Assembly: GCA_021787985.1 (NCBI GenBank)
Contig: JAJYLG010000029.1
Location: 1 to 34,803, forward strand
Length of the DNA stretch: 34,803 bases
Direction of reading: 5' to 3'
Source: Chloroflexota bacterium
Lineage (GTDB): Bacteria > Chloroflexota > Dehalococcoidia > DSGV01
A program made the translations under genes and the position numbers. Position 1 is the first letter of the stretch; every line of letters starts with the position of its first letter. Shown here one piece after another: positions 1,047-24,890 of the stretch. A model generated the notes under the pieces. It saw only the letters and a list, made by a program, of their open reading frames with translations. It was not told the origin of the DNA and did not search any database.

Positions 1047-1835
1047 ATGGCGACGGTGGAGTTCGAGCAAGCGTGTGAGGATGCCGAGGGTGCCGCGCAG
1101 GCGGCGGAGCGTGCGGCCAAGGACGTCCTGAAGGCCGCGAAGCAGATGGAGAAGGCGGCCCAGACAGGCGATGTCAAGAAGCTGCGCAAGTCCGCGGCGA
1201 GCATCCGCGCGGCCATCGAGGTTGCGCGACAGGCCGCAATGAACGCGGGCTCCGCATGGCCGTTCAGTGAAGAGCAGGAACAACAATACCTCGAGCGCGA
1301 GTACAACGCCGAGTTCCTGGCGACAGCCAAGCGCGCCGGCCTCACGGTGCACGCGCGCGACCAGCGGCTCATCGCGTTCCCGTCGATCGTGAGGATCTTG
1401 CCCAGCGACTTGGGAGTCAGCATCGACCGCAAGAAGGTCTATGCGATACGTCCGTCCCATCTCGTTTCCGTGCTGCTCAAGAGACAGACAAGCCGCGCGC
1501 GTTCGAAGAGTGAGCAGTTTCTGGAATCGCTCTACGCTGCCTACAAGCTGCTCGTCCCCAAGAATGAGCTTGGGAAGGTCATCAAACTGGTGGACGTCTA
1601 CCGCGCGTTCACGTTGCAGCCGGGCGCCGCGTCCGAGTACGACCGCAGTGAATTCGCGCGCGATCTCTACATGCTGGACCGGAGCCGCCTGAGGCACACG
1701 AGATCGCGTGCCACCGTCTCGTTGCCAGCGGCGCCGAGCGCCAGAGGCGCCGAGCGGGATCGCATCTCGTTCGTTGCCGAGGACGGCGAGCCGCTGACGT
1801 ACTACGGGCTCAGCTTCACGGAGGCGAAGGCATGA
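1047..1835 (+). CDS. Orphan protein with N-terminal coiled coil, first gene of ATPase-helicase operon
   Basis: This 262-residue protein belongs to no family I recognise. Residues about 3-68 are Ala/Lys/Glu-rich and heptad-like, so a coiled coil or long helical hairpin is expected. A folded domain follows, with AFPSIVRILPSDLGVSIDRKKVYAIRPS, FLESLYAAYKLL, LVDVYRAFTLQPG and EFARDLYMLDRS, then a basic linker and a C-terminal strand pair (ISFVAEDGEPLTYYGLSF). There is no signal peptide or membrane segment, so it is cytoplasmic. The ATG at 1047 directly abuts GAGGG. A GTG at 1056 (fourth codon) has that purine stretch at normal distance and may be the real start. The stop overlaps the next ATG by 4 nt, so translation is probably coupled. 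By position it could be a sensor or adaptor for the ATPases, but that is inference. Confidence 0.8.
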   Translation: MATVEFEQACEDAEGAAQAAERAAKDVLKAAKQMEKAAQTGDVKKLRKSAASIRAAIEVARQAAMNAGSAWPFSEEQEQQYLEREYNAEFLATAKRAGLTVHARDQRLIAFPSIVRILPSDLGVSIDRKKVYAIRPSHLVSVLLKRQTSRARSKSEQFLESLYAAYKLLVPKNELGKVIKLVDVYRAFTLQPGAASEYDRSEFARDLYMLDRSRLRHTRSRATVSLPAAPSARGAERDRISFVAEDGEPLTYYGLSFTEAKA

Positions 1836-2803
1836 CGGCGACCATCGACCCGGAACGCTGGCTGAAGTTCATTCGGGCGGAGTACCTGGACGCATTCATC
1901 AAGGAAGGCGGCTCATCGATCAAGTTCGCCGTCCCGTTCGATGCGGCCTCGAAGACATCCATCATCGAGGGCGTCCGGAAGTCGGCGGAGGCGTCCGGCT
2001 ATCTGGTTGCCCAGATTTCGGCCGAAGACACGCGCATCCACATGATCGATCAACTTTTCTTCCGGATTGCGGATCAGATGCCCTGGCCAGCGCTGAGCCA
2101 GCGTGTCATCAACAAGCTGGCCGTCGCGGCGCACTACGCGCCCGCGCCAGATGGCACCGAGCCGTTGGTCGACCGGATCGCCGCCGCGAACCATCTGGAG
2201 GCCGATTTCGTGAGGATGGAGATCCGCCCGAAGATAGAGGGACGGGTCACCAAGTGCAGCATGCTGGCCCGGGATTTTCGGGTGGCTGCCAGCCAGTTGT
2301 GCCTCGCCGAGCTCGCGGGCGATGCGGGTGGCGAGTCCATGACCGAGGCCATCACCGACTGGCTCACCGGCCGTAACAAGGCAATCGCCGCGGTCAAGCC
2401 GTATCAGATCTTCACACGGATTCATCGCACCAACGCCCGCTACCTGCTCGCCTCGCTGCTGCGCTGGGTGCGGTTCGCCGGCCACGCGGGGGTCGTCATC
2501 GTCATCGATATGGAGCGCGTCCTGGTCCCTTCGAACCCCCGGGACGGGACAGTGTTCTACACGAAGGCCGCGATGTTCGAGGCCTACGAGGTGCTTCGCC
2601 AGTTCATCGACGCCACCGACGAGATGAAGGGGTTGCTCATGGTGCTCGTGCCTTCCCGGGAGTTCGTCGATCCTGACTCGCCTCGCGGGATTGGCGTTTA
2701 TGAGGCCCTGAAGTTCCGCGTTTACGATGAGGTGCACGACCAGCGCCTGGTCAACCCCATGACGTCGCTCGTCCGCATCAAATCGTCAGGAGGTGCGCCG
2801 TGA
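1832..2803 (+). CDS. BrxC/BrxD-like P-loop ATPase relative with degenerate nucleotide site
   Basis: This 323-residue cytoplasmic protein has the layout of the ATPase encoded next to it but appears to have lost key nucleotide-binding residues. Where the P-loop is expected (about residues 26-37) it reads GGSSIKFAVPFD, without the Gly-Lys-Ser/Thr of a Walker A motif. The Walker B-like strand is VVIVIDME at 221-228: Asp226 is kept, but the following catalytic Glu is Met. The region after it (YTKAAMFEAYEVLRQFIDATDEMKGLLMVLVPSREFVD) parallels the segment after Walker B in the 2800-4080 protein. It overlaps both neighbours by 4 nt (ATGA before, GTGA after). The likely role is a non-hydrolysing partner in a mixed AAA-type assembly. 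The relation to BrxD is my reading of motifs and length; a profile search is needed to confirm it. Confidence 0.72.
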   Translation: MTATIDPERWLKFIRAEYLDAFIKEGGSSIKFAVPFDAASKTSIIEGVRKSAEASGYLVAQISAEDTRIHMIDQLFFRIADQMPWPALSQRVINKLAVAAHYAPAPDGTEPLVDRIAAANHLEADFVRMEIRPKIEGRVTKCSMLARDFRVAASQLCLAELAGDAGGESMTEAITDWLTGRNKAIAAVKPYQIFTRIHRTNARYLLASLLRWVRFAGHAGVVIVIDMERVLVPSNPRDGTVFYTKAAMFEAYEVLRQFIDATDEMKGLLMVLVPSREFVDPDSPRGIGVYEALKFRVYDEVHDQRLVNPMTSLVRIKSSGGAP

Positions 2804-4080
2804 ACGCGGGTGGCGCGAGGACCGAGGATCTCCGGCGGGCCCTCGAAGCGCTGCGCAACGGCGTGCCGAACCGCGACGCCGTGCGCTTCCTCGGCTGCGG
2901 TCAGACGAAGGTGGGGCCGCGCTTCCACGACCAACTCGCCAAGGTGGAGCCACTGCTCGACGAGGGCAGACAGGCAGAAGGGATGCTCGTCGCCGGCGAA
3001 TTCGGCACGGGGAAGTCGCACCTGCTCCAGTACCTTCAGCACATCGCGCTCGATCAGAACTTCATCTGCAGCCGCGTCGTGATCAGCAAGGAGACGCCTC
3101 TCTACGAGCCGGGGAAGGTGTACGAGGCCGCCGTCGGCTCCGCGGTGATTCCCGGGGCCAGCGGGCAGGTGTTCCAGGAAGTCTCGCCCAAGCTGCGCCA
3201 GGATCCGCCGCGATACGCGGAGTTCTTCCGCTGGGCTGGCAGCGAGGCAAGCGGCATCTCGCCACTGTTCCCGGCGACGCTCTTGTTGAAAGAACGGCTC
3301 AGCGGGGATCCCGAGCTGTCGGAGCAGATCAGCGGCTTCTGGGCCGGGGAGAAGCTGCCGGTCGCCCGCGTCCGCGTCGGGCTGCGGCAACTCGGCCAGG
3401 CGGCGGCCTTCTCCGTGCGTGCCGTGCCTCTCAAGCAGCTCGCCCTCCAGCGCTTCCGCTTCGCGCCGCGCCTGTTTCGCGCGGCCGGCTACAAGGGTTG
3501 GGTCATCCTCATCGATGAAGTGGAGCTGATCGGCCGTTACAGTCTGCTCCAGCGCGCGAAGTCGTATGCGGAGCTCGCCCGCTGGCTGGGGCTGGTCGCC
3601 GAGGAGCAGTACGCCGGCCTGACGGTGGTTGCCGCCATCACTGGAACCTTCGCTGAAGCGGTCCTGCACGACAAGGGCGACTGGGACCTCGTGGCGCCCC
3701 GCCTGCGTGACAAGGGCACGGAGGAGTTCAACGCGCTGGCCGCGCGCGCCGAGACCGGCATGCAGGTCATCGAGAAGAGAATCCCCCTCGTGGAGCCTGA
3801 TGATGCCGTGCTGCATCGGACTTATGCCACGCTCAAAGAGCTGCATCGCGACGCCTACGGCTGGGCGCCTCCCGACGTCTCCTGGGGAGAGCAATTGACC
3901 ACGCGCGCGATGCGCTCCTACGTGCGACGCTGGATCAACGAATGGGACCTCAAGCGCCTGTGTCCCGACGCGGAGCTCCACACGGAAGAAGAGGCTCTGA
4001 CCTCCGACTTCACAGAGAGCCCAGAACTGGAGCAGCCTCCGGAGGATCCCGCCAGCGGTGAGCGCGAGGCAGGCGAATAG
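2800..4080 (+). CDS. BrxD-like (DUF2791) ATP-binding protein
   Basis: This is a 426-residue P-loop ATPase of the BrxC/BrxD (DUF2791) type. The N-terminus, LRRALEALRNGVPNRDAVRFLGCGQ, matches the family's typical opening. Walker A is GEFGTGKS at residues 66-73 and Walker B is GWVILIDEVE at about 233-242, both intact. A sensor-like stretch follows (LTVVAAITGTFAEAVLHDKG), and the C-terminal tail is acidic. In BREX systems BrxD is the accessory ATPase, and related ATPases occur in other defence cassettes with helicases. Here it starts with GTG inside the stop of the previous gene and ends 3 nt before the next ATG, so it is co-translated with its neighbours. It probably forms an ATP-driven ring or clamp acting with the SNF2-nuclease encoded downstream. 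The family is well supported; the biochemical role is inferred. Confidence 0.87.
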   Translation: MNAGGARTEDLRRALEALRNGVPNRDAVRFLGCGQTKVGPRFHDQLAKVEPLLDEGRQAEGMLVAGEFGTGKSHLLQYLQHIALDQNFICSRVVISKETPLYEPGKVYEAAVGSAVIPGASGQVFQEVSPKLRQDPPRYAEFFRWAGSEASGISPLFPATLLLKERLSGDPELSEQISGFWAGEKLPVARVRVGLRQLGQAAAFSVRAVPLKQLALQRFRFAPRLFRAAGYKGWVILIDEVELIGRYSLLQRAKSYAELARWLGLVAEEQYAGLTVVAAITGTFAEAVLHDKGDWDLVAPRLRDKGTEEFNALAARAETGMQVIEKRIPLVEPDDAVLHRTYATLKELHRDAYGWAPPDVSWGEQLTTRAMRSYVRRWINEWDLKRLCPDAELHTEEEALTSDFTESPELEQPPEDPASGEREAGE

Positions 4081-4083
4081 GCG

Positions 4084-4626
4084 ATGGCGATCCCGTTTCG
4101 CGACCTGCGCCCGGACGACGGTGGCGCGCTCGCCGGCTACTTGCGCTTCGTCGATGAAGACGGCGGCCGTGGTATTCGCGGGGCGCTGTTCATCGTGAAC
4201 GCCCGCGGCGAGCCTCTCGACTTCACGTTCAGCCGCGTCGATGTCCCCGCGTCCTTCCTCTGGCGCGCGGGCGAGGCGCGGCGTCACGCCGTCGCTTCGC
4301 TCGTCGCCTCGCTGTTCCACGCCTGCGCGCAGACGCCCGCACTCATACTCTCGATGGCGGCCGAGGTGCATCCGCGCCTGTTCAGCGAGGATATCCGCGT
4401 CGAGGTCCCGCTATGCCGCATCGCGGAGGGCGTGGCGGTGGTCCACGCAGCCGATGAGTCGCCGGAGCCGCTCGCCGATGGGACGCATCTCTTCTGGCTC
4501 GGCGCGTCGCCACTGGCGGACTCCAACGCGCGGCGTCTGCTGGATGCGCTTGTGGCGCGGCACCTGCTACTGGAGCCGTTCGAGCGTACTGTGAAAGGCA
4601 TCGCCGAGGCGTTTGACGGATCATGA
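4084..4626 (+). CDS. Orphan 180-residue protein of the ATPase-helicase operon
   Basis: I do not recognise this family. The protein is soluble, mixed alpha/beta, with an N-terminal strand-rich part (LAGYLRFVDEDGGRGIRGALFIVNARGEPLDFTFSRVDVP), a helical middle (FLWRAGEARRHAVASLVASLFHACAQ) and a C-terminal helix pair (ARRLLDALVARHLLLEPFERTVKGIAEAF). No catalytic motif stands out. It is tied tightly into the operon: 3 nt after the ATPase stop, and its own stop overlaps the helicase start (ATGA). This fixed position between the ATPase and the helicase-nuclease suggests a structural or specificity subunit linking them. It lacks the BrxA, BrxB or PglZ features I would expect in BREX. Confidence 0.78.
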   Translation: MAIPFRDLRPDDGGALAGYLRFVDEDGGRGIRGALFIVNARGEPLDFTFSRVDVPASFLWRAGEARRHAVASLVASLFHACAQTPALILSMAAEVHPRLFSEDIRVEVPLCRIAEGVAVVHAADESPEPLADGTHLFWLGASPLADSNARRLLDALVARHLLLEPFERTVKGIAEAFDGS

Positions 4627-6767
4627 CCGACTGGTGGGCGCCGCGCGCGGAACGCACAACGCGCCGTCTCCTCTGGATGCGGCCCAGCCGTCCGCGCGCC
4701 GAGCCTGCCCTCCGCATACGCGCCGCGGTACCGCTGCCGGCGCCTACTGCCACGATCAGTGCGGCCATGGAAGCTGCCGAGCCCGGTCGGTCGCTCCTGC
4801 GATCGCCGATCTTCCTCGTCTCTGCCGTATCGAATGTCAACGTCGCGTCGCGCGCAGAACGAGACAACGTGTCGATGGAGACGCAACCGCCAGCCCCGGC
4901 GGCCGCCGCCGATCCCTCGATCACGCGAGTGCGGCCGGAGCCAGCACCCGTCCCGCCGGGCCCGAGCCTCGCGGATCGGCTGCGCTCGGTCCTCGCCGTG
5001 CCGCTTCGCGCGCTGCTTCCCGGCGACGCTTCCCTGCTCGAATGGCCGGCCGGCCTCATGCCCTTCCAGCTCGACGGCGTGCGCACGCTCCTGCAGAGCG
5101 AACGCCTGCTCCTCGCCGACGACATGGGGTTGGGGAAGACCGTGCAGGCGGCGGCCGCCATCCGGATCATGTGTGCCCAACGCACCATCGAGCGGGTGCT
5201 GCTGATCGTTCCAGCCGGGCTGCTTGACCAGTGGCGTCGTGAGCTCCACCGGTGGGCGCCCGAGCTCCGCGCGATCATCGTACGCGGACCCGCGCACGAG
5301 CGTGCGTGGAAATGGAAGGCCGAAGCCCACGTTGCGATCGTGAGCTACGAGACGTTCAGGTCGGATGCCGTATCGATTCCCGCGTCGGCGTCGCGGGCGC
5401 GCGTGTGGGATCTCGTCGTGCTCGATGAGGCGCAGAAGATCAAGAACCGCGAAGTCGATGTGAGCCGCGCGGTGAAGCAGCTCGCCCGTCGCCGTTCGTG
5501 GGCGCTCACAGGCACGCCACTCGAGAACAAGCTTGATGACCTCGCCTCGATCATGGAGTTCGTCGATCACGGCGATGGCGGTGAGCCGCGGCGCTACGCG
5601 CCCGATGCGCGCCTCCTCGATCGTCATCGCGAGCTGCAGTTGCGGCGGCGCAAGTCAGATGTCCTCGCCGAGTTGCCGGCCAAGCAGATGATCACGATCC
5701 AGGTGCCGTTGCTGCCTCGGCAGCAGGCGAGCTACAGTCGGGCGGAGTCCGAAGGGGTCGTGCGCCTGCGCGAGCGCGGTGCTGAAGTGCGTATCGAGCA
5801 CGTGCTCGAGCTCATCACACGGCTGAAGCAGATCTGCAACGTCGACGCGGCGACCGGCGAATCGGCCAAGTTCGAGGATATTCACGAACGGCTGGGCACG
5901 CTGTCGGACGAGGGTCACCGGGCGCTCCTGTTCTCGCAATACACGGACGACACGTTCGGCGTTGGCGCCGCCGCGCGCGCCCTGAGCGAGTTCCGGCCAC
6001 TCACATACGTGGGATCGATGTCAGGGGCCCGCCGGGACGCGACGATCGCGCAATTCAAGTCCGATACGTCGCATCGTGCGCTGATCCTCTCTCTCAAGGC
6101 AGGAGGTGTGGGGCTGAATCTGCAGGACGCGTCCTACGTGTTCCACATCGACCGTTGGTGGAATCCTGCTGTCGAGCGACAGGCCGAAGACCGCAGCCAT
6201 CGCATGGGGCAACTGGTTCCCGTCACCGTCTTCAAGTACGTGTGCATCGACACGATTGAGGATCGTATCGATCGCCTGCTCGCCGGGAAGCAGCAGTTGT
6301 TCGATGAGATCATCGATGATGTGTCGATCCTGCCATCGCGCCTGACGGGCGACGAACTGTTCGGGCTCTTCGGCATCGACGCACCGAGCCCGAAGGGGTA
6401 CGACCGCACGCAGCACCGGTCGGGTATCGCGCTCGAAGACCGGTGCGCGGCCATTCTGGAAGCCCGAGGCTGGCACGTCCAGCGAACGCCGGTCACGCGC
6501 GATGGCGGCGTCGATCTTGTAGCTACGAAGCTCGATGAGGTCGGAATCGAGCAGACGATGTTCGTCCAGTGCAAGGACCATGCGGTTGCGGTCGGTGTGG
6601 AAGTCGTCCGCGAGCTCCTGGGTGTGTTGCCGACCGAGCGACCGACCCGCGCCGTCATTGCCGCGCCCGCGGGTGTCACGCGCGACGGGAGCGCGCTTGC
6701 GGAGCGAAGAGGCATCGTGATCTGGGACGAGCGCGCGCTTGCGGCGCTCGAGGACCGCATCGCTTGA
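4623..6767 (+). CDS. SNF2-family DNA translocase fused to Mrr-type nuclease
   Basis: This 714-residue protein has two recognisable parts. The SNF2/SF2 motor carries motif I DMGLGKT at 167-173, motif II DEAQ at 268-271, motif III LTGTPLENKLDDL, and in the second lobe LILSLKAGGVGLNLQDASYVFHIDRWWNPAVERQAEDRSHRMGQ (motifs V and VI). The last ~115 residues form a PD-(D/E)xK domain of the Mrr_cat type: an E-containing helix (LEDRCAAILEARGW), then DGGVDLVA with Asp631, then Gln649-Cys-Lys651, so the catalytic set looks intact. The first ~130 residues are Pro/Arg/Ala-rich and poorly conserved in appearance. The protein should translocate on duplex DNA using ATP and cleave it. It is the probable effector of the operon, with the BrxD-like ATPases as loaders or regulators. 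Confidence 0.9.
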   Translation: MTDWWAPRAERTTRRLLWMRPSRPRAEPALRIRAAVPLPAPTATISAAMEAAEPGRSLLRSPIFLVSAVSNVNVASRAERDNVSMETQPPAPAAAADPSITRVRPEPAPVPPGPSLADRLRSVLAVPLRALLPGDASLLEWPAGLMPFQLDGVRTLLQSERLLLADDMGLGKTVQAAAAIRIMCAQRTIERVLLIVPAGLLDQWRRELHRWAPELRAIIVRGPAHERAWKWKAEAHVAIVSYETFRSDAVSIPASASRARVWDLVVLDEAQKIKNREVDVSRAVKQLARRRSWALTGTPLENKLDDLASIMEFVDHGDGGEPRRYAPDARLLDRHRELQLRRRKSDVLAELPAKQMITIQVPLLPRQQASYSRAESEGVVRLRERGAEVRIEHVLELITRLKQICNVDAATGESAKFEDIHERLGTLSDEGHRALLFSQYTDDTFGVGAAARALSEFRPLTYVGSMSGARRDATIAQFKSDTSHRALILSLKAGGVGLNLQDASYVFHIDRWWNPAVERQAEDRSHRMGQLVPVTVFKYVCIDTIEDRIDRLLAGKQQLFDEIIDDVSILPSRLTGDELFGLFGIDAPSPKGYDRTQHRSGIALEDRCAAILEARGWHVQRTPVTRDGGVDLVATKLDEVGIEQTMFVQCKDHAVAVGVEVVRELLGVLPTERPTRAVIAAPAGVTRDGSALAERRGIVIWDERALAALEDRIA

Positions 6768-14620: not shown

Positions 14621-14697
14621 TGGCGCCCCCGGCAGGACTCGAACCTGCGACGCGCGGCTTAGGACGCCGCCGCTCTGTCCAACTGAGCTACGGGGGC
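14621..14697 (-). tRNA. tRNA-Arg(CCT), CCA encoded
   Basis: On the minus strand the acceptor GCCCCCG pairs with CGGGGGC. The D-arm is GCTC..GAGC, the anticodon stem GCGGC/GCCGC encloses GTCCTAA (anticodon CCT), and the T-arm GCAGG-TTCGAGT-CCTGC is complete. The discriminator is G and CCA is encoded. It reads AGG codons. Confidence 0.95.
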
Positions 14698-14707
14698 GCG
14701 AGCTCGG

Positions 14708-15841
14708 CTACGACGTGGTCACACCGATCAGCCTGCCGATGCCGAACGTCACGGCGGCCGCGACCGCGCCGGTGAGCACCTGGCGGGCCGCGCTGTACAG
14801 CGGGTGCCGCCCGTTGATCAGCGACAGGCCCAGCCCTACCACCGCGAGCGTCAACGCCGCCAGGCCGATGGCGGACACGAGCGCTACCGTCCCTGAGGTT
14901 ATCAGGTAGGGCACGACGGGCACGAACGCGCCCGAGGCGAACATCACCAGGCTGCTGAACGCGGCGAGCCACGGCGAGCCGAGCGCGGAGGGCTCGATCC
15001 CCAGCTCCTCGCGCGCGAGCGTCGCCAGGGCGGTCTCCTTGTTCTCCATCAGCCGGTGGGCGATGCGTACCGCCTCCTCGGCGGGCAGCCCCTTGGCGCG
15101 GTAGATCAGCGCGAGCTCCTGCTCCTCCTCGGCGGGCATCTCCTCCAGCTCCTCGCGTTCGAGCCCGATCTGGCGCTGGAACATCTCGCGCTGGGCGGTC
15201 ATGGAGATGTATTCGCCGATCGCCATGGAAAGCGAGCCGGCCAGCAGGCCCGAGACGCCCGCCAGCAGGATGAAGTGCCGGCTCGCATTGGCGCCGGCGA
15301 ACCCCATCACCAGGCTCACGTTGGATACCAGGCCGTCGTTGACGCCGAACACGGCAGCGCGCAAGCCACCGCCCTGGTCCATGCGGTGCCACCGCTCGCC
15401 GCGGAGGATGGTGTCCGGGCTCACCAGGGCGGCGAGCCAGGTCGCCACCTTGGCGTGGGTGCGCTCGTCGTGGGAGATGCCCGCGGCCTCGGGCTGCAGG
15501 GCGTACTTGTTCATGTCGGAGAGCTCGCCCACCTGGACGATCGGCAGCACGGACTTGGGGCCGAAGCGGCGGGCGAGCCAGCAGATGAGGCGGGTCTTCA
15601 GGCCGGGCCGCAGCTCGGGCACCGGTACATCGGCCTGGCGCAGCTTCTGACGCCACAGGTCGGCGTGGCGGTCCTCCTCGGCGGCGAGGTCGCGGAACAG
15701 CCCGGCGCGGTCCGAGTCCTTCTCAGCCTCGGCGAGCCCGCGGTACATGGCGGCGCCGTCGACCTCGCCCTGCAAGTTGCGGCGGTAGCGTTCGATATCG
15801 CGCTTGGTGACCGTGGGTGGATGCTGCGATTCGATGCTCAT
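14708..15841 (-). CDS. Ferritin-like (rubrerythrin) / VIT1-CCC1 fusion membrane protein
   Basis: The protein has 377 residues. Residues about 15-120 form a ferritin-like di-iron domain (NLQGEVDGAAMYRGLAEAE with Glu26, then DLAAEEDRHADLW with Glu55/56 and His59). The C-terminal half is a VIT1/CCC1 transporter domain (GLRAAVFGVNDGLVSNVSLVMGFAGA, SMAIGEYISMTAQREMFQRQI, then EELEEMPAEEEQEL and three hydrophobic helices). Such fusions export or store Fe2+/Mn2+, with the di-iron part as sensor or oxidase. A start at ATG 15841 has GGAGGAG before it. A hairpin lies upstream between it and tRNA-Ala. Confidence 0.9.
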   Translation of the reverse strand: MSIESQHPPTVTKRDIERYRRNLQGEVDGAAMYRGLAEAEKDSDRAGLFRDLAAEEDRHADLWRQKLRQADVPVPELRPGLKTRLICWLARRFGPKSVLPIVQVGELSDMNKYALQPEAAGISHDERTHAKVATWLAALVSPDTILRGERWHRMDQGGGLRAAVFGVNDGLVSNVSLVMGFAGANASRHFILLAGVSGLLAGSLSMAIGEYISMTAQREMFQRQIGLEREELEEMPAEEEQELALIYRAKGLPAEEAVRIAHRLMENKETALATLAREELGIEPSALGSPWLAAFSSLVMFASGAFVPVVPYLITSGTVALVSAIGLAALTLAVVGLGLSLINGRHPLYSAARQVLTGAVAAAVTFGIGRLIGVTTS

Positions 15842-15872
15842 GCGGCTCCTCCAGGCGGCCTGGAGACACAAC

Positions 15873-15893
15873 CGCCCGGGCGATACCCGGGCG
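15873..15893 (-). terminator. Hairpin between tRNA-Ala and the ferritin-like/VIT gene
   Basis: An 8-bp perfect stem (CGCCCGGG / CCCGGGCG) with a 5-nt loop lies just downstream of tRNA-Ala on the minus strand, followed by GGTTGTGTCT. It probably ends the tRNA transcript. It could instead be a leader structure of the VIT gene, which starts 32 bp further on. Confidence 0.5.
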
Positions 15894-15909
15894 CGTTATC
15901 GTCAACGGT

Positions 15910-15985
15910 TGGTGGAGATAGGGGGATTCGAACCCCCGACCTCTGCGATGCGAACGCAGCGCTCTCCCAATTGAGCTATATCCCC
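15910..15985 (-). tRNA. tRNA-Ala(CGC), CCA encoded
   Basis: On the minus strand the acceptor GGGGATA pairs with TATCTCC. This includes the G3-U70 wobble that identifies alanine tRNAs. The anticodon loop TTCGCAT gives CGC. The D- and T-arms are intact, the discriminator is A and CCA is encoded. Confidence 0.95.
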
Positions 15986-16026
15986 ACGACGGGCAAACTC
16001 AGTCTAGTAATCGCTCGCAGGGCGCG

Positions 16027-16518
16027 TCAATCGAGCCTGGACGGAAGGACGATCGCCAGGTCGCCGACGCGCACGACACCCGGCTCGAGCACGCGCGCGT
16101 AGACGCGGCTCCAGCCCGGGTGGAGCTTGTGGCTGATACGGTCAGACCGGCCGTCGGCGAAGCTCGCTTCGATCTTGTGGCAGGGCGTCGTGAAACGCGT
16201 GACTTCGAGCAGCACGTCACCGACGGCGAGCCTGACCCCGGGTCGGATGGCCTCCCAGTCGATGCCGCTGACGGTCAGGTTCTCGCCCACGTGGCCGGGC
16301 GCGAGCGTGTGACCCTCGGCGCGGAGCGCCTCGATGCGCTCCAGCGAGTAGATGCAGACGGCACGGTCGGGACCGCCGTGGTGCTCCGTGTCGGCGTGCT
16401 GGTCGCCAACCAGGCCGTCAGGCGTCACGTCCGCCTCGGGCACCGGGTGCTTGGGCAGGCCGCCGGCCGAGACGTTGATCGACTGCACCACGCCGTGCAC
16501 GAGAGCCCGGTCTTCCAC
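16027..16518 (-). CDS. MOSC-domain protein
   Basis: This 163-residue protein carries the MOSC domain (molybdenum cofactor sulfurase C-terminal family): VVQSINVSAGGLPKHPV, GLVGDQHADTEHHGGPDRAVCIYSLE, GHVGENLTVSGIDW, LAVGDVLLEVTRFTTPCHKIEASF with the family's conserved Cys, and VGDLAIVL at the end. Relatives transfer or bind sulfur or molybdenum cofactor and detoxify N-hydroxylated compounds (YiiM type). I choose GTG 16518 because GAGGAG lies 9 nt upstream on the minus strand; the frame further upstream is Arg/Pro-rich and unlike the family. It is cytoplasmic and possibly downstream of the membrane protein gene. Confidence 0.88.
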   Translation of the reverse strand: MEDRALVHGVVQSINVSAGGLPKHPVPEADVTPDGLVGDQHADTEHHGGPDRAVCIYSLERIEALRAEGHTLAPGHVGENLTVSGIDWEAIRPGVRLAVGDVLLEVTRFTTPCHKIEASFADGRSDRISHKLHPGWSRVYARVLEPGVVRVGDLAIVLPSRLD

Positions 16519-16542
16519 GGTCGTATTCTCCTCTTCGGACGG

Positions 16543-16578
16543 GTCCGCCGCAGGCCTGCCTGCTGCAGGCAGGCGGAC
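16543..16578. terminator. Strong inverted repeat between two minus-strand genes
   Basis: The inner part, 16554-16574, is a perfect 10-bp inverted repeat around a single T. Flanking GTCCGCC (16543-16549) and GGCGGAC (16572-16578) offer an alternative outer pairing. It lies between the stop of the membrane protein gene (16632) and the MOSC start (16518). No T-run follows, so it may be a regulatory hairpin or a dimer binding site rather than a terminator. Confidence 0.4.
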
Positions 16579-16631
16579 CTCGGCTGCTCCCCACCCTACC
16601 CGATCGAGCCGGGAGGCCGCGCGGCCCTGCG

Positions 16632-18161
16632 TCACCGCACGAGCAGCCGATAGGGACCGAAGTCACCGGCCACGCGATAGTGGGTCGTCAGGTAGTCGTC
16701 GAGCAGGGTGCTGCCCGCCAGGCGCGAGGCGTTGGGCTCGACGGGCTGGGGAGCGGTCCACAGCACCACCAGCCGGCAGTGCTGGAGGTCGCGGACGATG
16801 GCGCGCTGGACGCTTGCCCGATCGGTAAGGCCGGGTGCGAACTCCAGGTACCGTGTCGCCGGCGGCAAGCCGATCCACCAGTAGAGGAAGGTCGGGCCGG
16901 AGATGGTGCGCGACGCGTGGGAGGCGAGCCCCACGTAGAGCGTGTCTCCCGGCCCGGCGCGAGCGCGGACGGCATCGCGGAGGGCGTCGAGCGTCGCGAC
17001 GTCCGGGCGGCTGGCCATCGGCAGCCAGTGCGCGCCGGCAGGCGACCGGAAGCGGGCGAACCCGTGGATGAGAGCAAGGCCGTCACCGGCGTAGCCCAGC
17101 GGGCGGGCCGGCCGCGTGAACGGGGATGCGGTCAGCGCGAGGAGGGCAAGGCCCGCTCCGGCGGTCGATGCCGCGAACGGCACTGCGAGCGGACGGCGGC
17201 CGCGTCGGCCGAAGGCCAATCGGCCGGCGAGGATCGCCGCGGGCAGCGCGCCGCTGAAGAAGTGCTGCCAGTCGGCGCGCTGGAGCACCTGGGCGGCCGC
17301 CACGAGGGAGACCGCCGTCAGCAGCGGCACGGCCTCGTCGGTTGTGGCGCGCCGCAGCGAGCGCGTCAGGCCGAGCGCCACGGCCGCGGCGGCGGCGAGC
17401 GCCAGCGGCAGGTAGCGAGCGTCGAGCAGCAGCTCGCTCAGCGGCAGGCGGCGGCCTGGGCTGATGCGGAGTATCGGATCGATGAACGTGTCGCGCCAGA
17501 AGGCCATGCCGAACGCCAGCGTGCTGGCCGCGAGCACGGCCGCCGCGCCCAGCAGGAAGCACGCCAGGTCGCCCGCCGCGCGGCGGAACGCCGCTGGCTC
17601 GTCACGGCGCAGCCATGCGCGGAGCGCCAGGCCGAGCGCGCCCGCCGGGAACGCCTCGAGGCGCATGAGCCCGGCAGCGAGAAGCAGCGCGATCGCCAGG
17701 GCACGTGCCGGCAGGGTGTCGCGCAGGACGAGCACCGCGCAGACGAAGCAGAGGACGGCGGCCGGGTAGGTGAACGCCCCTGGCCCGGTGCCGAACACCA
17801 GCAGCGCGAACGCGAACGCCCACAGCGGGCTCGGCCGGCCGCGCGGGGACACCAGCACCGTGGCGACGACGACGATCGCCAGGTGCAGCACGAACGCGGC
17901 GACACGCTCGGCGAGCAGCGAGGCTCCCGCCGCGTACCAGGGCGCCAGGTAGAGCAGGATCCCGGGCGGATACGACATCCAGAAGGAGCGGTACGGCAGA
18001 TGGCCGTGGAGCAGGCGCTCCGGATAGACGAGCAGCAGACCTTCGTCCATCGGCCAGAGGCCATAGACGATCGCCAGGGACCACAGGAGCAGGGCGGGAA
18101 GGGCGAGGGCGGCGACCCACCAGAGCGCGGACCGCAGACGGGCGCGCCGGCCGTCGGTCAC
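16632..18161 (-). CDS. Polytopic membrane protein, GT-C glycosyltransferase-like
   Basis: This protein of about 509 residues has at least ten hydrophobic segments and a C-terminal soluble domain of about 140 residues. After the first helix it has the loop GLWPMDEGLLLVYPERLLHGHLPYRSFWMSYPPGILLYLAPW. The acidic pair after helix 1 and the following Tyr/Pro pattern are typical of the GT-C fold (dolichyl/polyprenyl-phosphate sugar users, such as the PMT or ArnT groups). The C-terminal part (GDTLYVGLASHASRTISGPTFLYWWIGLPPATRYLEF) resembles the extracytoplasmic domain of such enzymes. Substrate is unknown. The GTG at 18161 fits the first helix best, but no ribosome site is seen. Its first codons are part of a 43-bp direct repeat. 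Confidence 0.78.
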   Translation of the reverse strand: MTDGRRARLRSALWWVAALALPALLLWSLAIVYGLWPMDEGLLLVYPERLLHGHLPYRSFWMSYPPGILLYLAPWYAAGASLLAERVAAFVLHLAIVVVATVLVSPRGRPSPLWAFAFALLVFGTGPGAFTYPAAVLCFVCAVLVLRDTLPARALAIALLLAAGLMRLEAFPAGALGLALRAWLRRDEPAAFRRAAGDLACFLLGAAAVLAASTLAFGMAFWRDTFIDPILRISPGRRLPLSELLLDARYLPLALAAAAAVALGLTRSLRRATTDEAVPLLTAVSLVAAAQVLQRADWQHFFSGALPAAILAGRLAFGRRGRRPLAVPFAASTAGAGLALLALTASPFTRPARPLGYAGDGLALIHGFARFRSPAGAHWLPMASRPDVATLDALRDAVRARAGPGDTLYVGLASHASRTISGPTFLYWWIGLPPATRYLEFAPGLTDRASVQRAIVRDLQHCRLVVLWTAPQPVEPNASRLAGSTLLDDYLTTHYRVAGDFGPYRLLVR

Positions 18162-18167
18162 GGGTTC
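18125..18167. repeat. 43-bp direct repeat, left copy
   Basis: This segment matches 21222-21264 at 41 of 43 positions in the same orientation. The left copy covers the first codons and start of the GT-C-like gene. The two copies bracket the toxin-antitoxin-rich segment of about 3.05 kb. Confidence 0.8.
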
Positions 18168-18333
18168 AGACGATGCAGGTGGTGGTCCGAGCACGTGGCC
18201 GTATGGCCCTTCAGGCACTGGCAGGAGGGCAGGTCGGCGGGCTGGCGCGAGGAGAAGACGACAGGCGCTACCCACCGCGGGCGGATGCCTGCCCCCGCGA
18301 ACTGGCAGGGGGTGGCTGGGCGCGCGGCCATAG

Positions 18334-18732
18334 CTACGGCTCGCCGAGCACCTCGACGTGGCAGAGGAGTCCTCGCACCCGTCCGAGGCGCTCGTCGGTG
18401 GTGATCAGGGTGGCGCGCAGTGCTTCGGCCAACGCGACGTACATCGCGTCCCAGCCGCGGACGTTCAGGCGGAGCTCCCACGCGCGCTCAAGGAGGTCGC
18501 GGTGGCCGAAGCGCTCACCCGGCCAGTCCCGGAGGTCCTCGACCGCCTGGTCCGCGGCGGTGGAGTCGAGACGGCCCAGGAGCCGATCTCGGCGGATGAT
18601 GTTCAAGACTTCGACATCGACAACGTGGGGCGCCGCGTGGTCCATGTCCGCGGCGAGGCGATCACGGATCCGCTCGGCGCGAGCCGTCCCTGCCACCACC
18701 TCGTAGATGCAGGACGCGTCAACGACCAGCAT
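18334..18732 (-). CDS. VapC-like PIN-domain toxin
   Basis: This 132-residue PIN nuclease starts MLVVDASCIYEVV (first acidic Asp, and a Glu in the following helix). A central VDVEVLNIIRRD holds the conserved Glu, and RGWDAMYVALAEAL and ITTDERL supply the last two acidic positions. The four-acid Mg2+ site therefore looks intact. VapC toxins cut tRNA or rRNA and are neutralised by the cognate antitoxin. The start overlaps the end of the upstream antitoxin gene by 14 bp, giving the classical antitoxin-first VapBC order on the minus strand. Confidence 0.92.
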   Translation of the reverse strand: MLVVDASCIYEVVAGTARAERIRDRLAADMDHAAPHVVDVEVLNIIRRDRLLGRLDSTAADQAVEDLRDWPGERFGHRDLLERAWELRLNVRGWDAMYVALAEALRATLITTDERLGRVRGLLCHVEVLGEP

Positions 18733-18964
18733 CCGGCCACGGACCGCGCAGCTCGTCCAACGCCTCGGTCACCTCTGCTCTCGTGATCGCGCTCCGCCGG
18801 CGCCGGGTCCTTGCCAGCCACTCCTCGACGCTGGGTCGAGCGGCCAGTCGGGCCGCCTCCCGGCGCAGCAGCTCGGGCACGGTGATGCCGGCCGCGGCAG
18901 CGTGGCGCTGAAGCGACGCGTACACCTCGTCATCGATCTCGCGGATCTGCACGGTCTTAGGCAC
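18719..18964 (-). CDS. VapB/FitA-like ribbon-helix-helix antitoxin
   Basis: This 81-residue protein begins MPKTVQIREIDDEVYASLQRHAAAAGITVPELLRREAARLA. This is an N-terminal ribbon-helix-helix DNA-binding unit of the FitA/VapB type. The tail (RPSVEEWLARTRRRRSAITRAEVTEALDELRG) would wrap the PIN toxin. It starts with GTG at 18964 and has no ribosome site, so the mRNA is probably leaderless or nearly so. The upstream inverted repeat is a likely autoregulatory operator. Confidence 0.88.
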   Translation of the reverse strand: MPKTVQIREIDDEVYASLQRHAAAAGITVPELLRREAARLAARPSVEEWLARTRRRRSAITRAEVTEALDELRGPWPDAGR

Positions 18965-18965
18965 G

Positions 18966-18985
18966 GACGCATGTTATCATGCATC
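18966..18985 (-). promoter_or_regulatory. Likely vapBC operator overlapping the -10 region
   Basis: The inverted repeat GCATG-N4-CATGC (18969-18982) begins 5 bp upstream of the antitoxin GTG and has an AT-rich centre (ATAA on the minus strand). TGATAA or GATAAC could be the -10 box, placing the transcription start at or next to the GTG. Autorepression by the ribbon-helix-helix antitoxin is the family norm. Confidence 0.5.
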
Positions 18986-19439
18986 GGCGCATGATGGCCC
19001 CATCGTCGGTCGCTGCCGTGACCGGGAGATGCGACCTGCGCCCCTGTGCCGGCTCCCGGATGTCGGCCGGCGTCGCCGCGTAGCTCTCCTCTGGCCGGAG
19101 CCGGCCACGAATGGACCGTAACAGGTAGACCGTGGCTGTGGCATGGGTGCCAACAACGGCGACCACCAGGTCGCCCCCGGATTGGCCGGCAGAGCCGCTC
19201 GGCTCTTGGGCGAAGGAGGCCTGGCAGCCCGGGGCCCGCTCCCCGAACGAGCGACCGCGCCTCACCCTCTGTCCGCGTTCTTCGTCGTGTGCGGCCCTGT
19301 GGACATGGTCCTCGCGATGATCCCTGACCCGCCTGGCCTCGGTCGAACAATACGGATGCTGCCCGGATCAGGTCGGACCCACCGGGCGCAGCACTCCGAG
19401 TAGCAAGGGCATTATCCCAGCGCTGTATGGGCGCGCTAG
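18986..19439. other. Non-coding interval between two toxin-antitoxin-type modules
   Basis: These ~450 bp carry short open frames on both strands but none with family features or plausible codon patterns. No tRNA, hairpin cluster or insertion sequence remnant was recognised. Confidence 0.5.
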
Positions 19440-19468
19440 TTGCACGTACGTACTTGCGATGCCATGAT
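19440..19468 (+). promoter_or_regulatory. Promoter of the 19475 gene, probably leaderless
   Basis: TTGCAC (19440-19445) and CATGAT (19463-19468) are separated by 17 bp. The expected transcription start coincides with the ATG at 19475, and no ribosome site precedes that ATG. Confidence 0.5.
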
Positions 19469-19474
19469 ATGGGC

Positions 19475-20125
19475 ATGGAACACGGCCAGCAGACACCGAC
19501 GACATCCCCCGAGCCCGACCTTCAAATGAGCGGCACTGCTGAAGGCTTGTTGGCCTTTCTCGACTGGGCGAGCCGAACCGGCGAGCTCAGCGCCAACACC
19601 ACGGCGGCGTACAAGACGGCGGTGACGCGGGTTCTCGAGATCGACGGGGAGTCGTGGCGGAGCAGGAACGTCCGAGAGCTGGACGTTGCCCGCCAGATGG
19701 ACCGTTTCGCCCGAGTTCGGGGCAGCCGATACAATCCTGCGAGCATCCAGGCGTACGGAAATCGCCTCAGCGCGGCCGTCGCCCAATATCTAAGATATCT
19801 CGCGGATCCGGCGGGGTTCCGGGCGGGGCAAGCGAACGTCGCACGTGCCAAGTCCTCAGGCCGGCCACGGGTCGCCCGAGTCGGCAAAGCGCCGAGCAGC
19901 CCGGATCGAGCGAGCCGAGCAGGGACGGTGCCTATGTCCGGCGACCCGTCGGTGCCTACCGACCTCGTGCAGTACCCCTTCCCTCTCCGGGCAGGGGTCA
20001 TGGCGTACCTGTCGCTCCCCAGGGACCTTCAACGCGGCGAGGCGCAGCGAATCGCGGCATTCGTCGCCAGCCTGGCGATCGATCCTGTCGCGGAGAGCGA
20101 AGCCGGGGGGCAGGAAGGTCACTAA
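19475..20125 (+). CDS. Integrase N-terminal (SAM-like) domain protein without catalytic domain
   Basis: From ATG 19475 the protein has 216 residues. Residues about 17-110 resemble the core-binding SAM-like domain of tyrosine recombinases (GLLAFLDWASRTGELSANTTAAYKTAVTRVLEIDG..WRSRNVRELDVARQMDRFAR.., then ASIQAYGNRLSAAVAQYLRYLADP). The catalytic R-K-H-R-H-Y domain is absent. A basic linker leads to a small C-terminal module, YPFPLRAGVMAYLSLPRDLQRGEAQRIAAFVASLA. It is therefore likely a DNA-binding protein derived from, or sharing a fold with, an integrase domain. Its stop overlaps the start of the toxin-like gene by 1 nt (TAATG). It could be the regulator or antitoxin of that gene; this is inference. 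Confidence 0.7.
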   Translation: MEHGQQTPTTSPEPDLQMSGTAEGLLAFLDWASRTGELSANTTAAYKTAVTRVLEIDGESWRSRNVRELDVARQMDRFARVRGSRYNPASIQAYGNRLSAAVAQYLRYLADPAGFRAGQANVARAKSSGRPRVARVGKAPSSPDRASRAGTVPMSGDPSVPTDLVQYPFPLRAGVMAYLSLPRDLQRGEAQRIAAFVASLAIDPVAESEAGGQEGH

Positions 20126-20556
20126 TGTCTCCTGCGGGAGGCGGGCCTGCACCCTGGCGGATCCACTTCTTTCAGCGTCATCGCGACGACGATGCCTCCA
20201 CCGCCGTCCCGGCGCGGGACTTTCTGGACTCACTGCCACCCAAGATTGCGGCGGAGTTCCAGGCCGTCCTTGATGCCGTCGCCGCGGCGCCGCCACCCGC
20301 CTTCTCCGGGGGCGGGAAGTGGGAGGCCATGCACGGGGACATGGGTGGCATCTACGAAGTGCGCATTAGCTCGGCAGGCGCCAATCACCGCCTGTCTTGC
20401 CTGCTGGTTCACGGGTCCGGACGCCTCAGCGGGCCAAGCATAATCTGCCTTGGTGGCTTCAAGAAGCCGCCCCGGTCGGCGGCTCATCGGCGCGAGTATC
20501 TCCGGATCAGGCAGTACGCCGACGAGTTCCGGAAGCACGAAGGGGTGCTTGGATAG
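20125..20556 (+). CDS. HigB/Gp49-like (RelE-superfamily) toxin-like protein
   Basis: This 143-residue protein fits the phage-derived Gp49/HigB (DUF891) group of RelE-like mRNA interferases: WRIHFFQRHRDDDASTAVPARDFLDSLPPKIAAEFQAVLDAVAAAPP, then KWEAMHGDMGGIYEVRISSAGANHRLSCLLVHG, ICLGGFKKPPRSAAHRREYLRIRQYADEF. The YEVRI strand, the GFKKP turn and the basic C-terminal helix are the family signature. The active centre is formed by basic residues in these segments. It begins at the stop of the integrase-like gene, and its last 50 bp overlap the convergent XRE gene. Confidence 0.83.
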   Translation: MSPAGGGPAPWRIHFFQRHRDDDASTAVPARDFLDSLPPKIAAEFQAVLDAVAAAPPPAFSGGGKWEAMHGDMGGIYEVRISSAGANHRLSCLLVHGSGRLSGPSIICLGGFKKPPRSAAHRREYLRIRQYADEFRKHEGVLG

Positions 20557-20905
20557 AAGCAGGGGAATCCGGGGCGCCGATGTCCAACATTGAACCTTGC
20601 GGCGCCATTTGAGCTGATGCGGTGCAGAAGCGCAAGTCCAGTGCGTCCGCGATCGCGACCAGGGTTGTGAGCGTCGGGTTCTTGTGCTGCTGCGAGAACA
20701 GTCGGCGAACGACCGCCGGAGGCATGTCCGCTCGGCGGGCCAGCTCTGCCTTGCTCATCCCCAACTCCTGCCGACGAGCATCAAGGGAGCGCACCACATC
20801 GTCAAACATCCCGATCCGACGCGAGGCGGCCTCATACGCCCGCTCGTAGGCGGGATCCGACCTGCGCTGGGCCAGGTATTGCTCGGCCGCGGTCCTGGGC
20901 CTCAT
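20507..20905 (-). CDS. XRE-family helix-turn-helix protein, HigA-like
   Basis: This 132-residue protein has an N-terminal helical lead-in (AAEQYLAQRRSDPAYERAYEAASRRIGMFDDVVRSLDARRQELG), then the XRE HTH (MSKAELARRADMPPAVVRRLFSQQHKNPTLTTLVAIADALDLRF) and a Pro-rich tail. This layout is common in antitoxins of Gp49/RelE toxins. Unusually, the gene faces the toxin-like gene tail to tail and overlaps it by 50 bp instead of sharing its operon. Upstream of the ATG there is no ribosome site; TACACT a short distance upstream could be a -10 of a leaderless transcript. Confidence 0.85.
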   Translation of the reverse strand: MRPRTAAEQYLAQRRSDPAYERAYEAASRRIGMFDDVVRSLDARRQELGMSKAELARRADMPPAVVRRLFSQQHKNPTLTTLVAIADALDLRFCTASAQMAPQGSMLDIGAPDSPASIQAPLRASGTRRRTA

Positions 20906-21276
20906 GGAGGGAGTGTAACATTCATGCTACGCCCGCGCCAGAGCCAAGGGCGAGCCAGGCGGGCAGCCTGTCCCGGCAGCCACTTCTCGGTTCGCCCGCC
21001 AAGGCGCCACCGTCGTCAGCGTCGAACGTCGGACGCGGCGGTGGTGCGCGACAAGTGGGCCAGGCACGTCGGCCTGGACGGCCTCAGCTTTGACGCTACT
21101 GGCCGCGGCGCGCGGGTGCTTGCCGAGGGCCGCTTCTGCCGCTATCTGTCATCGGTGGGCGGCCTGCGGGGCTGCGCGTCATGTGGTGTCGCTCGCTGCC
21201 GCAGACCGCCAAGGCCCCGCCGCGCGGACCGCAGACGGGCGCGCCGGCCGCTGGTCACGGGTTCGGGGGGTAGGGT
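20906..21276. other. Non-coding interval ending in the right direct repeat
   Basis: These 371 bp between the XRE gene and tRNA-Val hold the right copy of the 43-bp repeat and no supported gene. A short plus-strand stretch (RQGATVVSVER) resembles nucleotide- or CoA-enzyme fragments, but it is too short to call. Confidence 0.5.
21222..21264. repeat. 43-bp direct repeat, right copy, next to tRNA-Val
   Basis: It is 41/43 identical to 18125-18167 in direct orientation. It lies 12 bp from the encoded CCA of tRNA-Val(TAC). In the left copy the same sequence is the 5' end of the GT-C-like gene, so this one looks like a displaced fragment of that gene. Confidence 0.8.
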
Positions 21277-21353
21277 TGGTGGGCGATAGAGGACTCGAAC
21301 CTCTGACTCCGTGGGTGTAAACCACGTGCTCTGGCCAACTGAGCTAATCGCCC
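21277..21353 (-). tRNA. tRNA-Val(TAC), CCA encoded
   Basis: On the minus strand the acceptor GGGCGAT pairs with ATCGCCC. The anticodon stem CGTGG/CCACG encloses TTTACAC (anticodon TAC), and the T-arm AGAGG-TTCGAGT-CCTCT is intact. The discriminator is A, with CCA encoded. Confidence 0.95.
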
Positions 21354-21357
21354 ACGG

Positions 21358-21654
21358 CTAGACGCCGCCGCGGACGAAGGGCCAGCCCGGACCCACGCCC
21401 GAGAAGGGGCCCGCCGCGCTGTTCTCGTCCTCGACGGAGTGGTCGGCGCCGTTCCAGTCCTCGCGGCGGAACTTGCGGCCGAGGAATCGCTCCAGCGAGC
21501 GGACGGAGATCTCCAGCGGCCTGCCGTCGGTGGACTCGCGGGCCTCGAGTTTCCCTTCCCGGACCCAGCCGGTCACCGCCGCGACGTCAGCCAGGAGTCG
21601 GCCGGCCGCCCGGTAGATGCTCACCCACTCGTCGCGCTGCGTTTCCTGGCGCAT
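21358..21654 (-). CDS. Small excisionase/MerR-type HTH protein
   Basis: This 98-residue protein carries EWVSIYRAAGRLLADVAAVTGWVREGKLEARESTDGRPLEISVRSLERFLGRK. This follows the winged HTH_17/excisionase pattern: a helix, the turn, a recognition helix ending in W-V-R-E-G-K-L, a wing, then a strand. The C-terminal 40 residues are acidic/Gly-Pro-rich and probably disordered. It starts 5 bp from tRNA-Val. It may be a recombination directionality factor left by an element that used this tRNA, or a small cytoplasmic regulator. Confidence 0.7.
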   Translation of the reverse strand: MRQETQRDEWVSIYRAAGRLLADVAAVTGWVREGKLEARESTDGRPLEISVRSLERFLGRKFRREDWNGADHSVEDENSAAGPFSGVGPGWPFVRGGV

Positions 21655-21755
21655 CCGTCACGTCACCCGCAGTCTGAGCCGCTTCCTCCGCCGGGAGGAT
21701 GGGCGGCCCGAGCGGATCATACACGGGCTCGACGCCGTTAGACGAGGGATGGCCG

Positions 21756-24311: not shown

Positions 24312-24412
24312 GTTCGGGTCTTAGTCTAGCGTCTTCGGACCCGAGCCGCCTGGGCGCGCTCGGCTCGGACAAGCCGGGAGCTCGCACGTGCACGGCTGAA
24401 AGGTGAGAGGGA

Positions 24413-24490
24413 TGGCGCGCTCGGCGGGACTTGAACCCACGACCTCGGCCTCCGCAGGGCCGCGCTCTATCCAAACTGAGCTACGAGCGC
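24413..24490 (-). tRNA. tRNA-Arg(GCG), CCA encoded
   Basis: On the minus strand the acceptor GCGCTCG pairs with CGAGCGC. The anticodon stem CGGCC/GGCCG encloses CTGCGGA, giving GCG. The T-loop is TTCAAGT, with CCA encoded. G34 would read CGC and CGT codons. Most bacteria use tRNA-Arg(ACG), whose A34 becomes inosine, so the direct G34 form is unusual. Confidence 0.92.
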
Positions 24491-24507
24491 GCGTAGATGT
24501 CAGGAGA

Positions 24508-24594
24508 TGGTGCCGAAGGGGAGATTTGAACTCCCACGCCCGCAAGGGGCACTACACCCTGAATGTAGCGCGTCTGCCATTCCGCCACTTCGGC
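24508..24594 (-). tRNA. tRNA-Leu(CAG), CCA encoded
   Basis: On the minus strand the acceptor GCCGAAG pairs with CTTCGGC. The anticodon stem CTACA/TGTAG encloses TTCAGGG (anticodon CAG). A long variable arm (TGCCCCTTGCGGGCG) marks a class II tRNA. The T-arm is GGGAG-TTCAAAT-CTCCC, with CCA encoded. Confidence 0.95.
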
Positions 24595-24605
24595 ACGCGG
24601 TCTGA

Positions 24606-24682: not shown

Positions 24683-24890
24683 GCGGTCACCAGTATAGAA
24701 ACGGCCCGTGGCGCCTTCAAGGTCGGGTCCTGTCCGCTGGTCTCGGCGCCGGCCGCCTCGGCTGGGCATCTCCGCGTCCTGTTCATTGTACCGTTGAGAG
24801 GGCCGATCGTGGCGGCACCGGGGGCGGGCCGGCATCCTGTGCGCGGGACCGCGGTGGTCCGGTCCCGACCGAAGTCGTGGAGGAAGCTCG

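What the first reader, a model, noticed from the sequence alone, without database searches (positions are those of the whole stretch)
1832..4080. Paired catalytic and pseudo-catalytic BrxD-like ATPases
The 2800-4080 protein has Walker A GEFGTGKS and Walker B ILIDE. The adjacent 1832-2803 protein keeps the strand ending in Asp (IVIDME) but has no P-loop Lys/Ser and no catalytic Glu. The segments after Walker B appear to align. A duplicated ATPase with one inactive copy suggests a hetero-oligomer, such as an asymmetric ring or a sensor-motor pair.
Basis: partly seen in the sequence, partly recalled or inferred. Interest (0 to 1): 0.7.

Follow-up and report, generated by a model that had tools for sequence, protein, structure and literature searches.

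The report
Split BrxD-type ATPase, one half dead
Two neighbouring genes encode an ATP-burning protein and a permanently dead sister of it; in relatives from at least 14 bacterial phyla the dead copy has lost the ATP pocket but kept the part expected to reach into its partner's pocket, so the two probably form one shared engine that drives a DNA helicase, most likely in defence against invading DNA.

Summary
Both proteins belong to Pfam BrxC_BrxD. C (2800-4080) has intact Walker A and B; B (1832-2803) has neither a P-loop nor the Walker B Glu. They lie in a tight operon A-B-C-D-E (1047-6767) ending in a SNF2 helicase with an Mrr nuclease. The loss is fixed: 0 of 86 B proteins from at least 14 phyla has a P-loop, while 68 of 68 aligned C proteins keep FGxGKSH and DE. 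B and C are fused in 10 ORFs, two independent lineages. AlphaFold of B is confident (pLDDT 95.8). Degeneration is complementary: single Shango SngB ATPases carry both the P-loop and a YxALxxR motif at the AAA+ arginine-finger position; twin systems with two P-loops keep the motif only in B; here B keeps only the motif and C only the ATP site. The nearest outgroup B (L034) has Walker A but a dead Walker B, so loss was stepwise. Best reading: one obligate B-C complex, C binding ATP, B probably donating the arginine finger, loading or gating an SF2 helicase. Complex: very likely. Finger in trans: plausible, untested. Defence: probable. Neither BREX nor Shango; no earlier description found in the open library searched.

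The parts
1047..1835 (+). Gene A, 262 aa: long helical hairpin, small beta region, C-terminal alpha/beta region; no known family; adjacent to B and C in nearly all relatives
   Evidence: No Pfam/PADLOC/NCBIfam match above cut-off; AlphaFold2 pLDDT 94.6, no PDB relative; synteny
1832..2803 (+). Gene B, 323 aa: inactive BrxD-type AAA+ protein (no P-loop, no Walker B Glu, no C-terminal lid)
   Evidence: PF10923 E=4e-14; 0 of 86 relatives has a P-loop; AlphaFold2 pLDDT 95.8
1934..1957 (+). B residues 35-42 (PFDAASKT): remnant of the P-loop position, directly after strand 1
   Evidence: Alignment with P-loop relatives
2492..2515 (+). B residues 221-228, Walker B strand: Asp226 invariant (76/76), catalytic Glu absent
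2684..2719 (+). B residues 285-296 (RGIGVYEALKFR): conserved RGxxxYxALxxR, at the place of the AAA+ arginine finger (just before the last core strand)
   Evidence: R285 and Y290 76/76, R296 75/76; secondary structure; motif distribution
2800..4080 (+). Gene C, 426 aa: active BrxD-type AAA+ ATPase
   Evidence: PF10923 E=1.9e-21; SngB model 5e-8
2995..3018 (+). C Walker A GEFGTGKS (residues 66-73)
   Evidence: FGxGKSH pattern invariant in 68 of 68
3505..3519 (+). C Walker B ILIDE (residues 236-240)
   Evidence: DE invariant in 68 of 68
4084..4626 (+). Gene D, 180 aa, unknown; present where helicase E is present
   Evidence: No family match; synteny
4623..6767 (+). Gene E, 714 aa: SNF2-family helicase with C-terminal Mrr-type nuclease
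   Evidence: SNF2-rel_dom 2.9e-46, Helicase_C 6.7e-17, Mrr_cat 8.4e-20; motif GGVDL...VQCK present
6420..6749 (+). Mrr_cat nuclease domain of E (residues 600-709)
   Evidence: present in about half of the E relatives

Best explanation
Genes B and C encode the two halves of one heteromeric ORC/Cdc6-like AAA+ ATPase. C binds and hydrolyses ATP. B is a permanently inactive BrxD paralog that has no P-loop but keeps the surface that completes a neighbour's ATP site, so it probably donates the arginine finger to C. The B-C unit, with the helical protein A, works as a loader or gate for the operon's SF2 helicase (E: SNF2 with or without an Mrr nuclease; an XPB-like helicase F in one mainly actinobacterial lineage), letting it act on invading DNA. 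SHOWN by sequence: family, motif loss, fixation, co-conservation, fusions, order of loss, complementary motifs. INFERRED: physical complex (about 0.85), finger in trans (about 0.5), helicase loading (about 0.5), defence role (about 0.7). Stoichiometry and ring shape are unknown.
For: Both proteins in PF10923. B lacks the P-loop in 0/86 retained cases, i.e. all, while C keeps FGxGKSH and DE in 68/68. Ten natural B-C fusion ORFs in two independent lineages. A-B-C adjacent in nearly all relatives, with an SF2 helicase next door in most complete loci. Motif split: Shango SngB, single copy, has P-loop and YxALxxR (5/5); twin P-loop B 7/7 and 7/7; twin C P-loop 7/7, motif 0/7 at the homologous site; here B motif 85/86, C motif 1/68, equal to the chance rate of 0.011 per sequence. 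YxALxxR lies between strand 4 (268-273) and the last core strand (313-316) of the B model, where BrxD's arginine finger is placed in PMC12839542, which also proposes that BrxD loads BrxHI. First-gene and second-gene trees branch in the same order.
Against: No model or experiment of the complex. C keeps partly conserved Arg/Lys residues in its own strand 4-5 segment (R301: R 45, K 22, Y 1; R303: R 57 of 68), so it may have a finger of its own. The identification of YxALxxR as the finger rests on position only. Four fusion loci (L066, L070, L078, L087) have no detectable A, D or E nearby, so the B-C unit may also work without them. Foldseek of B gives no match with E below 0.001. The window itself is not in an obvious defence island.
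Confidence: 0.5

Rival explanations
1. B is a sensor or scaffold pseudo-NTPase, like the inactive STAND protein BrxB in BREX: it binds DNA, a phage product or the helicase and only regulates C; it gives no catalytic residue.
For: Inactive P-loop proteins are common sensors in BREX (PMC12839542). B has many invariant residues outside the motif (Y18, G26, G27, W85, R150, W177, R199, D226, E253, R256, D260).
Against: The retained motif is exactly the one C has lost, and single-copy SngB has both. Proposed BREX sensors are described as fast-evolving; B has 45% mean column identity over at least 14 phyla.
Confidence: 0.3
2. B is a decoy for phage-encoded inhibitors aimed at BrxC/BrxD-type ATPases (phage OrbA inhibits BrxC, PMC11580459, seen only as an abstract).
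For: Inactive copies beside active ones are a known decoy pattern in defence.
Against: A decoy should resemble the target C; B and C share almost no direct sequence similarity. Fusions to C and near-universal co-occurrence point to a structural part.
Confidence: 0.05
3. The operon does DNA repair or replication restart rather than defence; B-C is a helicase loader in that role.
For: The window's own neighbours are ordinary genes (P-type ATPase, SNase-like). No phage or plasmid record carries it. The control regions also gave a few PADLOC hits.
Against: Patchy distribution (13 of 301 genomes of the phylum with P-loop-less orthologs, read), Mrr nuclease, kinship with Shango, and defence genes beside several relatives: type I RM in L047/L052, DUF1156 methyltransferase in L056, with PtuA, ZacA/ZacB, DpdF and AbiLi models hit in flanks.
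Confidence: 0.14
4. B is a decaying pseudogene-like remnant with no function.
For: It has lost its N-terminus, P-loop, Walker B Glu and lid.
Against: 18 invariant columns over 76 sequences, open frames across at least 14 phyla, fusions to C, confident fold.
Confidence: 0.01

Closest known systems
Shango (SngA TerB-like, SngB BrxD-type ATPase, SngC DEAD/DEAH helicase; PMC10250203)
   Same: BrxD-type ATPase next to an SF2 helicase; C matches SngB weakly (5e-8); twin relatives have an SngC/BrxHI-like helicase.
   Different: Two BrxD-type proteins instead of one, one of them dead; no SngA match in gene A; SNF2-Mrr or XPB-like helicase instead of SngC. SngB has both P-loop and YxALxxR in one chain.
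Type 2 BREX (BrxD and BrxHI)
   Same: BrxD family ATPase and a neighbouring helicase; proposed helicase loading (PMC12839542).
   Different: No PglZ in the genome, no other BrxC/BrxD locus, B and C at 57 and 67 bits against a BrxD equivalog cut-off of 350.
Paired Orc/CDC6 neighbourhoods with one degenerate copy (PMC10853773)
   Same: An active ORC/Cdc6-type ATPase beside a second one with a broken site.
   Different: [quoted passage not shown] here Walker A is gone too, the family is BrxD-like and the partner is an SF2 helicase. L034's B resembles the earlier state.
ZorD (Zorya), DrmD (DISARM), DpdE helicases
   Same: Gene E's SNF2 helicase core resembles them (ZorD 2e-70, DpdE 4e-63, DrmD 7e-42).
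   Different: Genes A-D match none of the other Zorya, DISARM or Dpd models; the similarity is limited to the helicase.

Membership tests
BrxC_BrxD ATPase family (PF10923) | Match above Pfam's gathering score (22.2 bits) | tested here: met
   B 52.8 bits, C 76.9 bits
BREX system | PglZ present | tested here: not met
   PF08665: no match in the window's genome, 95.6% complete
BREX system | BrxD equivalog cut-off (350 bits) | tested here: not met
   56.9 and 67.4 bits
BREX system | BrxC present elsewhere in the genome | tested here: not met
   The only PF10923 matches in the genome are genes B and C; DUF6079/DUF499-type BrxC models were not searched genome-wide
Shango | SngA (TerB-like) protein | tested here: not met
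   Gene A: no PADLOC match up to E=1
Shango | One complete SngB ATPase | tested here: not met
   Two proteins, motifs split between them; SngB model only 5e-8 to C and none to B
Shango | SngC-type helicase | tested here: not met
   E is SNF2 family; SngC is not among its 25 best PADLOC matches; the SngC-like profile H does not call E
Heteromeric AAA+ with a finger-only subunit (works-like claim) | Partner lacks own ATP site but keeps the finger region; active subunit the reverse | tested here: met
   B 0/86 P-loop, 85/86 YxALxxR; C 68/68 P-loop, 1/68 YxALxxR
Heteromeric AAA+ with a finger-only subunit (works-like claim) | Finger contacts the partner's nucleotide | not testable with these tools
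   No complex modelling available
Anti-phage defence system | Located among defence genes more often than chance | tested here: inconclusive
   Flanks of 17 loci richer in defence genes than a smaller, imperfectly matched control
Anti-phage defence system | Reduces phage or plasmid entry in an assay | not testable with these tools
   No experiment

The most novel reading that the evidence does not exclude
A previously undescribed, widespread immune operon (A-B-C plus an SF2 helicase) whose AAA+ motor was made by splitting one ATPase: after an ancient duplication one copy kept only the ATP pocket and the other only the finger that fires it, so the motor can work only as an asymmetric B-C pair; living intermediates (single SngB, twin ATPases with two P-loops, a twin with a half-dead copy, a fully dead copy, re-fused halves) record each step.
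Probability: 0.42. Interest if true: 0.75.

Novelty: new variant of a known kind. Interest (0 to 1): 0.62.

Why it matters
BrxD-type ATPases sit beside helicases in BREX and Shango, and what they do there is unsettled. A system in which nature has separated the ATP site from its proposed activating surface gives a clean genetic handle: one lysine in C and one arginine in B should each abolish the machine, and the natural fusions give a single polypeptide for structural work. It would also be a case of complementary degeneration after duplication in prokaryotic immunity with the intermediate stages still alive, and it marks a candidate defence family in at least 14 phyla for which the libraries searched here hold no dedicated model.

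Tried and rejected
Direct BLASTP of B against C and hhalign on small alignments were too weak to show homology; the shared Pfam family and larger profiles carry it. PDB sequence search: nothing for the single proteins; BrxC 9zdx and relatives only weakly for the C profile. Plasmids and phages: no match. Foldseek for gene A: nothing meaningful, so its role is open. The 255-aa gene before the Nitrospira fusions was tested as a diverged A and rejected (hhalign E=0.56). A recent-duplication reading was rejected: B groups with first-gene P-loop copies, C with second-gene copies. A BREX reading was rejected. The single YxALxxR in a twin C protein (L035) lies about 50 residues after the P-loop, not at the homologous site. 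One Pfam call failed on bad coordinates and one literature search on an illegal term. A first regular expression for the Mrr motif missed most cases and was redone.

Full report
WHAT IS THERE. The window holds a tight five-gene operon on the + strand: A 1047-1835, B 1832-2803, C 2800-4080, D 4084-4626, E 4623-6767. A/B, B/C and D/E overlap by four bases and C/D are 3 nt apart. B and C each match Pfam BrxC_BrxD (4e-14 and 1.9e-21), E is a SNF2 helicase with an Mrr-type nuclease, and A and D match no known family. C has GEFGTGKS and ILIDE; B has neither a P-loop nor the Walker B Glu. These are the only PF10923 matches in the genome and there is no PglZ, so this is not BREX. The genome is a Chloroflexota member, probably Dehalococcoidia: a genome that one search lists as 'same class' (G114) appears to carry the same contig as the record titled Dehalococcoidia bacterium AUK178 (same length and same gene positions).

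IS THE LOSS FIXED? A search of 301 genomes of the phylum gave 18 with a B match: 13 carry P-loop-less orthologs (the window's own included), one (G137) is a divergent relative with a P-loop, and four are weak hits to P-loop twins (read). A scan of one genome per species found 126 relatives, 80 kept, from 14 named phyla. Among 76 aligned B proteins plus 10 B parts of fusions none has a Walker A. In C, FGxGKSH and DE are invariant in 68 of 68. In B the P-loop position is a variable stretch, mostly starting with Pro and an acidic residue, whereas strand 1 (GGAAVKFAV), Asp226, Arg285, Tyr290 and Arg296 are invariant or nearly so. B is therefore a maintained pseudo-ATPase, not a decaying copy. AlphaFold2 gives B pLDDT 95.8 and pTM 0.93. 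Foldseek's AAA+ matches (DAP3/mS29, Orc1, IstB; probability 0.87-0.95) fit a P-loop NTPase fold but are weak in E-value and TM-score.

DO B AND C WORK TOGETHER? A-B-C are adjacent in nearly all relatives. In ten ORFs of nine loci B and C are one protein joined by a short linker, in the gene order B-C; every B part lacks and every C part has the P-loop. On the tree of C the fusions need two origins, Nitrospirota/Nitrospinota and candidate division CSSED10-310. A tree of B and C with more distant pairs splits into first-gene and second-gene copies, with much the same branching order in each half, as expected of a pair inherited as a unit (quick tree, SH-aLRT only; the split between the halves has 93% support).

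HOW DID THE PAIR ARISE? Relatives in the same phylum form a series. (i) Shango-type loci (L164-L168; SngA, SngB or SngC confirmed by PADLOC for those tested) have one ATPase with both the P-loop and a YxALxxR motif (5 of 5). (ii) Twin systems (L034-L038, L169, L170) have two ATPases, both with P-loops; the first keeps YxALxxR (7/7), the second lacks it at that site (0/7; the one regular-expression match lies elsewhere). (iii) In L034 the first ATPase still has GRPGSGKT but its Walker B reads IDG; it is sister to the P-loop-less clade (97*). (iv) In the clade of the window B has only YxALxxR (85 of 86; the exception is cut by a contig end) and C only the ATP site (motif in 1 of 68, equal to the chance rate of 0.011 per sequence). 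(v) In two lineages the halves are re-joined. So the parts needed for a shared ATP site were divided between the two copies.

MECHANISM. [quoted passage not shown] In the B model the motif helix (291-297) sits just before the last core strand (313-316), the place of that finger. The simplest reading is that B completes C's ATP site in trans, and that the B-C unit positions or gates the operon's helicase. Where a helicase is found it is of superfamily 2: E (SNF2, with Mrr in about half of the cases) or, after one swap in a mainly actinobacterial clade, F (XPB-like). The contact between B's arginines and C's nucleotide is inferred, not shown. C's own partly conserved Arg/Lys at 301 and 303 is the main reason for doubt.

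DEFENCE OR NOT? Flanking ORFs of 17 loci hit type I restriction genes, a DUF1156 methyltransferase, PtuA, ZacA/ZacB, DpdF and AbiLi models at very low E-values (positions known for type I RM in L052/L047 and the methyltransferase in L056). A smaller control of random Chloroflexota regions gave mainly one Orf5/SspE-like and one HamB-like set; the control is not matched by genome, so this is suggestive only. With the patchy distribution, the Mrr nuclease and the kinship with Shango, defence is the likely role, but the window's own neighbours are ordinary genes and nothing was assayed.

NOVELTY. Searches for DUF2791, BrxD-like/PF10923 and related terms found no description of this operon in the open library; subscription papers and preprints were not covered. 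The nearest precedent is a mobile neighbourhood with an active Orc/CDC6 and a second one with intact Walker A but disrupted Walker B (PMC10853773). I rate it a new variant of a known kind.

Noticed in passing
L035, L036, L037, L038, L169, L170: Twin BrxD-type ATPases, both with P-loops, in other Chloroflexota operons, several with an SngC/BrxHI-like helicase next door: another apparently undescribed architecture related to Shango.
   Followed up: partly
L034:3105-6436: Divergent A-B-C locus whose B still has Walker A (GRPGSGKT) but a dead Walker B (IDG): a living intermediate.
   Followed up: yes
L068, L074, L108-L114 and others, right after C (e.g. L068:10196-11824): A mainly actinobacterial clade has replaced D and the SNF2 helicase E by one XPB/RAD25-like helicase F of about 530 aa.
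   Followed up: partly
L066, L070, L078, L087: Nitrospira-type fused B-C genes stand without detectable A, D or E; a conserved 255-aa gene lies just upstream and a 448-aa hydrophobic protein downstream.
   Followed up: partly
L085:1045-5832; L077:3-9022: Tandem copies: two fused B-C genes in a row in L085; two copies of the system on one contig in L077.
   Followed up: no
L056:1413-7103: DUF1156 methyltransferase and a PLD-SNF2 helicase directly upstream of A-B-C-D-E, possibly one composite operon.
   Followed up: no
L099: MAG labelled Bifidobacterium breve carries a copy that groups with Acidimicrobiia-type sequences; probably mislabelled or contaminated.
   Followed up: no
window 14621-25487: Seven tRNA genes on the minus strand; none adjoins the operon.
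   Followed up: no
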